From Candidatus Altimarinota bacterium (GTDB lineage: Bacteria; Patescibacteriota; Gracilibacteria; BD1-5; UBA6164), in NCBI GenBank assembly GCA_013368515.1, contig JABWCI010000003.1:1-64000 (forward strand): DNA of 64,000 nucleotides. Direction: 5' to 3'. The position numbers and the translations under genes were made by a program. Every line of letters begins with the position of its first letter. Position 1 is the stretch's first letter. The notes beneath the pieces were generated by a model. It saw nothing but the letters and a program-made list of their open reading frames with translations, had not been told where the DNA came from and did no database searches. Positions 26,980-53,101 of this stretch are shown here, piece by piece.

Positions 26980-27468
26980 ATGATTATTTTATGAATAGAT
27001 CCTGGTACAACAACAATAGGTTATTGTATAGTTAAAAAAAATAAATCTAAAATTGAACTATTAGATTATGGTATATTTAAAACAACTCCTAAGATTTGAT
27101 TAGAATATAAGATATTGGAGATATGAAAAGATATAGATTATATCATAGAAAAATATAATCCTGAGCTTTTAAGTATAGAAAAATTATTCTTTCAAACAAA
27201 TACTAAAACTGCAATAGATGTAGCGCAAGCAAGATGAGTAATAATTTATGAAGCTATTAAAAAGTGATTAAAAATAAAAGAATATACTCCTTTACAAGTA
27301 AAAAAAGCTATAACAGGAAATTGAAATGCAAATAAAACGCAATTACAAAATGCTATAAAAATATTATTTTGACTTGATAATATACCTAAGCCAGATGATG
27401 CCGCAGATGCAATATGACTTGCATATATCTGAGCACTAAACTCAAATCTAATAAATAATTGATTTTAA
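26980..27468 (+). CDS. ruvC: Holliday junction resolvase RuvC
   Basis: Crossover junction endonuclease, 162 residues, the family's usual length. The N-terminus [15 protein letters not shown] holds the first catalytic Asp, SIEKLFFQ the catalytic Glu and PDDAADAIG the C-terminal acidic pair. It cuts Holliday junctions during recombination. The gene stands alone upstream of a tRNA gene. Confidence 0.95.
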
Positions 27469-27499: not shown

Positions 27500-27576
27500 A
27501 TGGACCTAGCTTAATTAGAAGAGTGCTCAGATTCCGACCCTGAGAGGCATACGTGCAATTCGTATGGTCCATGCCA
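27500..27576 (+). tRNA. tRNA with anticodon CCG (Arg by table, Trp-like acceptor)
   Basis: Cloverleaf of 77 bases with encoded CCA. The acceptor stem ATGGACC pairs fully with GGTCCAT, so pair 1-72 is A-U, and the discriminator is G73. The anticodon arm CTCAGA..CCTGAG has one A-C mismatch and loop TTCCGAC, giving anticodon CCG, which reads CGG. A1-U72 with G73 and a C34-C35 anticodon start match bacterial tRNA-Trp identity rather than typical tRNA-Arg (G1-C72). The D-loop has AG in place of G18G19 and the T-loop has TGC in place of TTC. It may therefore decode CGG as tryptophan; charging is not shown by sequence alone. Confidence 0.72.
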
Positions 27577-51795: not shown

Positions 51796-51872
51796 TTTAA
51801 AATAATTAAAAAAATAAATTACTATATATTATATAGTAATAAAATAAAAGTTCAAGTATTTTTAAAAAGAAA

Positions 51873-51895
51873 AAACCAGGCCGAAGCCTGGTTTT
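51873..51895 (-). terminator. foreign-looking terminator of nhaA
   Basis: AAACCAGGC-TTCG-GCCTGGTTT hairpin with a UUCG loop and following T run. This loop is typical of proteobacterial terminators, unlike the AT-rich A/T-tract hairpins elsewhere in the window. Confidence 0.85.
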
Positions 51896-51910
51896 CAGTT
51901 GAGAAAGCCC

Positions 51911-53101
51911 TCAGTTCACTTTTTTGACACCAAGAAGTCTTGCCAAAGCAAATGACAAAACAGCAGAGCCAAAGGAAAAAAGAGCACCCATTTTTGCAGC
52001 ATCTTGAACTGGTCCTGCAGGAAGAGCCACACCAGTGACAAACAAAGCCACCGTGAACCCAATACCAGCAATTTGACCAACAACAATAGTATCCTTTATA
52101 GTCATCCCTTTTGGCAACTGCAAACCGAGAATCCGGACTGCAAGTAATGCGAAAAGGAAAATCCCCAAAGGTTTGCCAATCAGTAATGCGAATGTAACTG
52201 CGTATGTCGCATCACCTACTGCTGAAAGTAGTACTCCAGCATTGAACAAACCAAAGAAGAAAAGGACAACCTCGACGAAAGGTTTTACTCGATGTTCAAA
52301 CTGGTTAAGTGTATCTTGTCTATGTCTTTCTCCTTCAGCAAAGAAGCCAAGGTCAGTTTCTGCATGTGGCATAGCCGGGATGATTGGAAGTAATCCAAGT
52401 GCTGGATGAATACCTGCCTCCTGAAAACCATACCACCCCAAAGCACCAAATGCAAGATAAGGCCAAAAACTTCTAACTTTAAACTTGCGATTCAATACAA
52501 GATAAGCAGTAAAGCTCATCAAGAAAGAAAATGCAAGCCATTCAAGCTTTATCTCACCTTGCGGGTAAAACAAAGCAAGAATTGTTAAACCAAGTGCATC
52601 ATCAGCAACTGCAAGCAAAAGCAAAAATGCAACAGCTGGATGACCTGAACCAAAAATCAACCTCCCTACAAGGTAAGAAAATGCAATATCGGTTGAAGTT
52701 GAGATAGCCCAGCCATTTTTCAAGGTATCAAGCGAGCCAAGAAAAACAGCAATCAGCAGATAAACAACTACCGGGCTGATAATGCCTCCCAGGGTAGCAA
52801 CCAAAGGAGTCAAGGCTTTTGTACCTTTTAAGGAACCATTTTTTAATATAATCCCTTCCCAGATTTCCTTTCCTGGAATTGCAAAGAAAAAAGCCATCAA
52901 AACATCATTGATGAGGTAATGGAGAGTCAAGACTCTTTGTCCATCAATCATCTGTCCGACATATGAATTGCTCAAGAGCACCATATGTCCTACATGATGA
53001 TAGTCATCATATGACAGGTTAGCCCAAAACAGGGCAATCAGAGCACCTAAAACTAATAGTAATGAATACTCCTCCAAAAATTTCCAAACTCGAACATACA
53101 T
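51911..53101 (-). CDS. nhaA: Na+/H+ antiporter NhaA, foreign gene
   Basis: Sodium/proton antiporter of 396 residues, the usual length. The ion-binding AVADDALGLTI (Asp pair), STSTDIAFSYL and IGKPLGIFL with its lysine are present. It differs from every neighbour: higher GC, glycines all GGN, arginine by CGA (twice) and CGG (once), a strong ribosome site (GAAAGGGG) and a UGA stop. Under the host code UGA would read as Gly and translation would run about 35 residues further through its own terminator to TAA near 51806. This is a recently acquired gene, probably from a standard-code bacterium. Confidence 0.95.
   Translation of the reverse strand: MYVRVWKFLEEYSLLLVLGALIALFWANLSYDDYHHVGHMVLLSNSYVGQMIDGQRVLTLHYLINDVLMAFFFAIPGKEIWEGIILKNGSLKGTKALTPLVATLGGIISPVVVYLLIAVFLGSLDTLKNGWAISTSTDIAFSYLVGRLIFGSGHPAVAFLLLLAVADDALGLTILALFYPQGEIKLEWLAFSFLMSFTAYLVLNRKFKVRSFWPYLAFGALGWYGFQEAGIHPALGLLPIIPAMPHAETDLGFFAEGERHRQDTLNQFEHRVKPFVEVVLFFFGLFNAGVLLSAVGDATYAVTFALLIGKPLGIFLFALLAVRILGLQLPKGMTIKDTIVVGQIAGIGFTVALFVTGVALPAGPVQDAAKMGALFSFGSAVLSFALARLLGVKKVN

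What the first reader, a model, noticed from the sequence alone, without database searches (positions are those of the whole stretch)
27500..27576. tRNA with CCG anticodon and tryptophan-type identity elements
It has A1-U72, discriminator G73 and CCA, as in bacterial tRNA-Trp, but its anticodon is CCG, which reads CGG. I found no in-frame CGG or CGA in the host-like genes I translated; arginine is mostly AGA with some CGT. The only CGA/CGG codons I noticed are in the foreign nhaA. It also lacks the usual G18G19 and TTC of the D- and T-loops. It may decode CGG as Trp, or be a decaying or unusual tRNA-Arg. From memory, CGA/CGG to Trp has been proposed for some Absconditabacteria; I cannot check this.
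Basis: partly seen in the sequence, partly recalled or inferred. Interest (0 to 1): 0.9.

Follow-up and report, generated by a model that had tools for sequence, protein, structure and literature searches.

The report
Odd-shaped tRNA reads CGG as tryptophan
This bacterium, which already reads the stop codon TGA as glycine, almost certainly also reads the arginine codon CGG as tryptophan, using an oddly shaped but well-conserved transfer RNA; a related genus lacks that tRNA and reads CGG the ordinary way.

Summary
The tRNA at 27500-27576 is real: 77 nt, anticodon CCG, encoded CCA. It is not decaying: 33 of 48 genomes in its family carry it, and its helices are supported by compensatory changes. 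In this genome and three relatives that carry the tRNA, CGG falls where homologues have Trp (log10 likelihood ratio, Trp over Arg: +24, +25, +29, +14). In a family member that lacks it, CGG is Arg (-94). CGA stays Arg in carriers (clear in one, supported in others), unlike published Absconditabacteria, where CGA and CGG both became Trp. CGG=Trp was already predicted for some Gracilibacteria, so the codon change itself is not new. What looks new is the tRNA: an anticodon helix one pair longer, a UGC T-loop in most members, no G18G19, and an invariant A20 (Arg-type) beside A1-U72 and G73 (Trp-type). Also new is a family in which CGG has two meanings, probably because one genus lost the tRNA. Charging with Trp is inferred, one site (GalU residue 252) does not fit, and the family could not be named.

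The parts
27500..27576 (+). tRNA with anticodon CCG and encoded CCA, inferred to insert Trp at CGG
   Evidence: ARAGORN, Rfam RF00005 40.5 bits, 27-sequence alignment and pair counts
27500..27506 (+). acceptor stem 5' side; A1 pairs with U72 (27572); pairs with 27566-27572
   Evidence: 7 of 7 pairs kept in all rows, 4 with double changes
27513..27520 (+). D-loop AATTAGAA: A at 18, G19 and A20 kept
   Evidence: positions 18-19 are AG, CG or GA in the family, never GG
27526..27544 (+). anticodon arm with one extra outer pair (27526 with 27544) and an inner A.C mismatch (27531, 27539)
   Evidence: outer pair: 26 of 26 rows paired, 14 double changes; inner pair not standard in 18 of 26
27534..27536 (+). 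anticodon CCG
   Evidence: invariant
27554..27560 (+). T-loop TGCAATT (G at 55 instead of T)
   Evidence: invariant in the 27 aligned rows; TTCAATT in four further members
27573..27576 (+). discriminator G73 and encoded CCA
   Evidence: invariant
26980..27468 (+). ruvC, the conserved neighbour of the tRNA
   Evidence: Pfam PF02075 E 8.6e-46; found beside or near the tRNA in 12 other loci

Best explanation
The gene makes a working tRNA that is charged with tryptophan and inserts it at CGG. The organism thus uses code 25 (TGA=Gly) plus CGG=Trp, while CGA keeps its Arg meaning in carrier relatives and has almost vanished in this genome. Shown: the tRNA is conserved and structured; CGG codons sit at Trp positions in genomes that carry it and at Arg positions in one that lacks it. 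Inferred: charging by the single TrpRS through G73, A1-U72 and C34-C35, with G36 tolerated; sole reading of CGG by this tRNA, since no tRNA(UCG) was found; an altered but working elbow; presence in the family ancestor near ruvC, with later loss in one genus.
For: Codon inference, log10 Trp over Arg: this genome +23.9, G051 +24.8, G032 +28.9, G064 +13.7, against -93.8 in non-carrier G041. By site the carriers give 23 Trp, 1 Arg and 5 other. valS: CGG at a column with 28 of 28 Trp in carriers G032 and G033; CGG at Arg columns (29 of 29, 28 of 28) in non-carriers G042 and G048. Solved structures show Trp at the K+ channel, RelA and CBM2 sites. The same CGG is shared by different genera where G041 has TGG, so it is not sequencing error. 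Covariation; distribution; no UCG or ACG tRNA found. G73 is a major and A1-U72 a minor Trp determinant in bacteria (PMC9976931).
Against: No charging or peptide data. A20, an Arg element, is invariant. GalU residue 252 is CGG where homologues have Arg. The tRNA does not resemble this genome's own tRNA-Trp(CCA). This genome's aligned sample is small (8 informative sites). The search for a UCG tRNA was not exhaustive.
Confidence: 0.9

Rival explanations
1. It is an unusual tRNA-Arg(CCG), and CGG still means Arg.
For: A20, C35 and G73 satisfy the Arg rule used in PMC8629427 (A20 invariant). GalU residue 252 fits Arg.
Against: Aligned residues at CGG favour Trp by 14 to 29 log10 units in four carrier genomes; only 1 of 29 informative sites is Arg. 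The Arg tRNAs of this genome that I read have G1-C72 and A73, this one A1-U72 and G73.
Confidence: 0.03
2. CGG is read ambiguously, as Trp and partly as Arg, because the tRNA carries both kinds of identity marks and ArgRS charges a share of it.
For: Invariant A20 with G73; one Arg site in GalU.
Against: No second Arg site among 29 informative CGG sites in carriers. Alignments cannot measure a minor fraction.
Confidence: 0.1
3. It is a tRNA withdrawn from translation, like the Staphylococcus aureus peptidoglycan tRNAs-Gly that lost G18G19.
For: Altered positions 18 and 55; S. aureus non-proteinogenic tRNAs-Gly have UU or CU at 18-19 and weak EF-Tu binding (PMC4052509).
Against: No other CCG or UCG tRNA was found in this genome, yet CGG is used in rpoC, relA and other genes at Trp sites; the CCG anticodon is invariant.
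Confidence: 0.02
4. It is a decaying tRNA or a chance fold.
For: Folding energy alone is not exceptional (z -0.94); GC-poor arms and odd loops.
Against: 41 of 77 columns invariant in 27 sequences; 76 double changes against 17.7 in shuffles; conserved neighbour ruvC.
Confidence: 0.01

Closest known systems
CGA and CGG to Trp in Absconditabacteria (Shulgina and Eddy 2021, PMC8629427)
   Same: UGA=Gly, CGG=Trp, low GC, rare CGG, a CCG tRNA with G73
   Different: Here CGA stays Arg; no UCG tRNA found; the tRNA has A20 and a different shape
CGG to Trp predicted for some Gracilibacteria (same paper)
   Same: CGG=Trp in some members and Arg in others, UGA=Gly; probably the same phenomenon
   Different: That paper gives no tRNA account in its text; here the tRNA, its structure and its tie to codon meaning are shown. 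I could not check whether these genomes were among theirs
CGG to Trp in Anaerococcus and in an RFN20 clade of Bacilli (same paper)
   Same: CGG=Trp with CGA=Arg, CCG tRNA with Trp-type features, UCG tRNA missing
   Different: Those read CGA with a tRNA(ICG) and use UGA as stop; here no ACG tRNA was found and UGA is Gly
tRNAs with 4-bp anticodon stems (PMC13092985)
   Same: Innermost anticodon-stem pair is broken (A.C) in about half of the members
   Different: Here an extra outer pair brings the helix back to 5 pairs with a 9-nt loop, or 6 pairs in the rest
Non-proteinogenic tRNA-Gly of Staphylococcus aureus (PMC4052509)
   Same: Loss of the G18G19 pair of bases
   Different: G19 is kept in most members here, and codon use requires it in translation

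Membership tests
Absconditabacteria-type code (UGA=Gly, CGA and CGG=Trp) | UGA read as Gly | tested here: met
   Full-length ORFs only under code 25; tRNA(UCA) with G1-C72, C2-G71, G3-C70, U73
Absconditabacteria-type code (UGA=Gly, CGA and CGG=Trp) | CGG read as Trp | tested here: met
   log10 Trp over Arg +23.9 in this genome
Absconditabacteria-type code (UGA=Gly, CGA and CGG=Trp) | CGA read as Trp | tested here: not met
   Arg in carrier G064 (-29.1) and Trp disfavoured in G032 (-8.3); CGA at conserved Arg in trpS of carriers G056 and G039. No aligned CGA in this genome itself
CGG-to-Trp reassignment (general kind) | CGG codons at Trp positions | tested here: met
CGG-to-Trp reassignment (general kind) | tRNA(CCG) with G73 and without A20 (rule of PMC8629427) | tested here: inconclusive
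   G73 met, but A20 present in all members; D-loop is unusual so N20 is open to argument
CGG-to-Trp reassignment (general kind) | tRNA charged with Trp | not testable with these tools
   Needs a charging assay; TrpRS shows no residue separating carriers from non-carriers at 80%
tRNA-Arg(CCG) | CGG at Arg positions | tested here: not met
   1 of 29 informative sites in carriers
4-bp anticodon-stem tRNA | Only four pairs in the anticodon stem | tested here: not met
   Outer pair 27-45 holds in 26 of 26 rows with 14 double changes, giving 5 or 6 pairs
Gracilibacteria or Absconditabacteria by taxonomy | Placement in the named group | not tested

The most novel reading that the evidence does not exclude
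A sense-codon reassignment was reversed: the family ancestor read CGG as Trp through this odd tRNA, and one genus (eight genomes without it) lost the tRNA and returned CGG to Arg. In carriers the altered elbow and longer anticodon helix may be adaptations that confine the tRNA to CGG and leave CGA as Arg.
Probability: 0.4. Interest if true: 0.8.

Novelty: new variant of a known kind. Interest (0 to 1): 0.62.

Why it matters
PMC8629427 argued that in these bacteria CGA and CGG are hard to split, because a tRNA(UCG) reads both. Here they are split. One family holds both meanings of CGG, so gain and loss of a sense-codon reassignment can be followed gene by gene. Annotation with code 25 alone writes Arg for Trp at every CGG in these genomes. 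The tRNA joins Arg-type and Trp-type identity marks with an unusual elbow, which makes a clean test of how TrpRS and EF-Tu accept a new substrate.

Tried and rejected
Decay or a chance fold: rejected. A recent copy of this genome's tRNA-Trp: not supported, since that tRNA is not among the model's hits, although in G041 and some other families tRNA-Trp(CCA) is the best ordinary match. A second TrpRS: one copy here, two in a few relatives, no carrier signature. Virus origin: no exact match in the viral contigs. A relic of the tRNA beside ruvC in non-carrier G041: none found. My first idea that Rfam misses this tRNA was wrong: the fast genome search did not list it, cmscan does. CGA in PgsA (residue 87) lies outside the part aligned to solved structures. 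The first trpS alignment used wrong frames and was redone.

Full report
The feature. ARAGORN finds a tRNA at 27500-27576 on the + strand with anticodon CCG. Its 7-bp acceptor stem starts with A1-U72 and is followed by G73 and an encoded CCA. Rfam's tRNA model matches it at 40.5 bits, below the 43.8 to 76.2 bits of the 31 tRNAs listed for the genome. The window is contig C27 of a 1.15 Mb, 28-contig assembly; the window is 23.8% GC. Full-length genes appear only under code 25, with TGA as Gly, and the genome has a tRNA(UCA) with the Gly-type marks used in PMC8629427.

Conservation. A DNA search of 77 genomes of the order found homologues. Twenty-seven align without gaps, with 41 of 77 columns invariant. 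Pair counting gives 95.6% standard pairs and 76 cells with double changes, against 17.7 in shuffles and 3 to 7 when partners are slid. A covariance model run over 353 genomes of the class shows a sharp gap. At 89 bits or more it hits 32 genomes of the family plus G019 of another family with two copies; G054 has a copy cut by a contig end, so 33 of 48 family members carry it. Next is G137 of a different family at 72.6 bits: also CCG, A1-U72, A20 and G73, but with ordinary GG and TTC loops. Ordinary tRNAs follow at 62 bits or less; the highest-scoring one that I read is tRNA-Trp(CCA).

Anatomy. Columns 27 and 45 pair in all 26 distinct rows with 14 double changes, so the anticodon helix is one pair longer than usual at its outer end. 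The innermost pair is an A.C mismatch in 18 of 34 members, leaving 5 pairs and a 9-base loop; in the others it is C-G, U.G or C.A. The T-loop is UGCAAUU in 30 of 34 and UUCAAUU in four. Positions 18-19 are AG, CG or GA, never GG. A20, G73 and A1-U72 never vary.

Codon meaning. In about 793 kb of this genome CGG is used 1.5 times and CGA 0.6 times per 10,000 codons. I aligned ORFs of five genomes with CGG and CGA masked, kept positions with at least 40% identity in the flanking residues, and scored each codon against residue exchange rates from the other codons. CGG comes out as Trp in the four carriers (log10 Trp over Arg +23.9, +24.8, +28.9, +13.7) and as Arg in G041, a family member without the tRNA (-93.8). 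CGA is Arg in G064 (-29.1) and G041 (-1396); Trp is disfavoured for CGA in G032 (-8.3); in this genome no CGA could be aligned. valS shows the same split for CGG, and trpS shows CGA at conserved Arg in two further carriers. In the valS run G071 was still labelled as lacking the tRNA; the model later found it, and its one CGG lies in a Leu/Trp column. Solved structures have Trp at three CGG sites: the K+ channel pore helix, RelA just after the TGS domain, and a CBM2 module. One site disagrees: GalU residue 252, where homologues have Arg. Pairs are not independent events; counted by site the carriers give 23 Trp, 1 Arg and 5 others, and some sites are shared between genomes.

What else could read CGG. 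The RF00005 list and ARAGORN over the stretches read give Arg anticodons UCU, CCU and GCG besides CCG, and no UCG or ACG. The fast search had missed the CCG tRNA itself, so an equally odd UCG tRNA in the unread third of the genome is not excluded. Genus g6, whose eight genomes have no match at the family's scores, has a tRNA-Arg(UCG) in the one genome where I read it (G045).

History. ruvC lies beside or within about 1.4 kb of the tRNA here and in 12 other loci from several genera, so the tRNA is largely inherited vertically. In G041 the stretch after ruvC holds no relic. In a valS tree g6 falls among the carriers, which suggests loss and return of CGG to Arg. The root is a midpoint and one gene was used, so this is a lead, not a result.

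Charging. Inferred only. In bacteria G73 is the major Trp determinant, with A1-U72 minor and G3-C70 and G4-C69 strong in B. subtilis; C34 and C35 matter in yeast and in an archaeon (PMC9976931). All of these are kept here, and the anticodon differs from CCA only at base 36. A20 is an Arg element under the rule of PMC8629427, so a rule-based classifier would call this Arg or decline.

Against the literature. CGG to Trp is a known kind of change: reported for Absconditabacteria (with CGA), Anaerococcus and an RFN20 clade, and predicted for some Gracilibacteria (PMC8629427). PMC13092985 states that Absconditabacterales CCG tRNAs all have 5-bp anticodon stems. I could not name this family, so I cannot say whether these genomes were in those sets. 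The papers I searched do not describe this tRNA's shape.

Noticed in passing
window 51806-53101 (-): A foreign nhaA at 40% GC in a 24% GC genome. It has two CGG and two CGA codons, one CGG at an Arg of E. coli NhaA, ends with TGA (Gly here) and is followed by a terminator-like hairpin; it would be misread in this host, or it marks a recent arrival or an assembly join.
   Followed up: partly
L024:1498-1575 (-): This genome's tRNA-Arg(GCG) is 78 nt and, as I read its anticodon loop (CCGCGAA), has C instead of U at position 33.
   Followed up: no
L177:17188-18150 (-), genome G032: The TrpRS gene of a carrier relative itself has a CGG at residue 91, where this genome and G051 have TGG-encoded Trp, so TrpRS would need the reassigned codon for its own synthesis.
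   Followed up: no
L055, genome G019: Two copies of the odd tRNA about 700 bases apart in a genome of another family whose other members lack it: horizontal transfer or a misplaced contig.
   Followed up: no
L232:527-603, genome G137: A CCG tRNA with the same A1-U72, A20, G73 and outer anticodon-stem pair but ordinary GG and TTC loops, in another family: a possible intermediate form.
   Followed up: partly
genomes G039 and G049: Two full-length TrpRS matches each in these carriers, against one in most genomes of the family.
   Followed up: no
L030:1501-1600: An RF00005 hit of 100 bases that ARAGORN does not call as a tRNA; its identity was not worked out.
   Followed up: no
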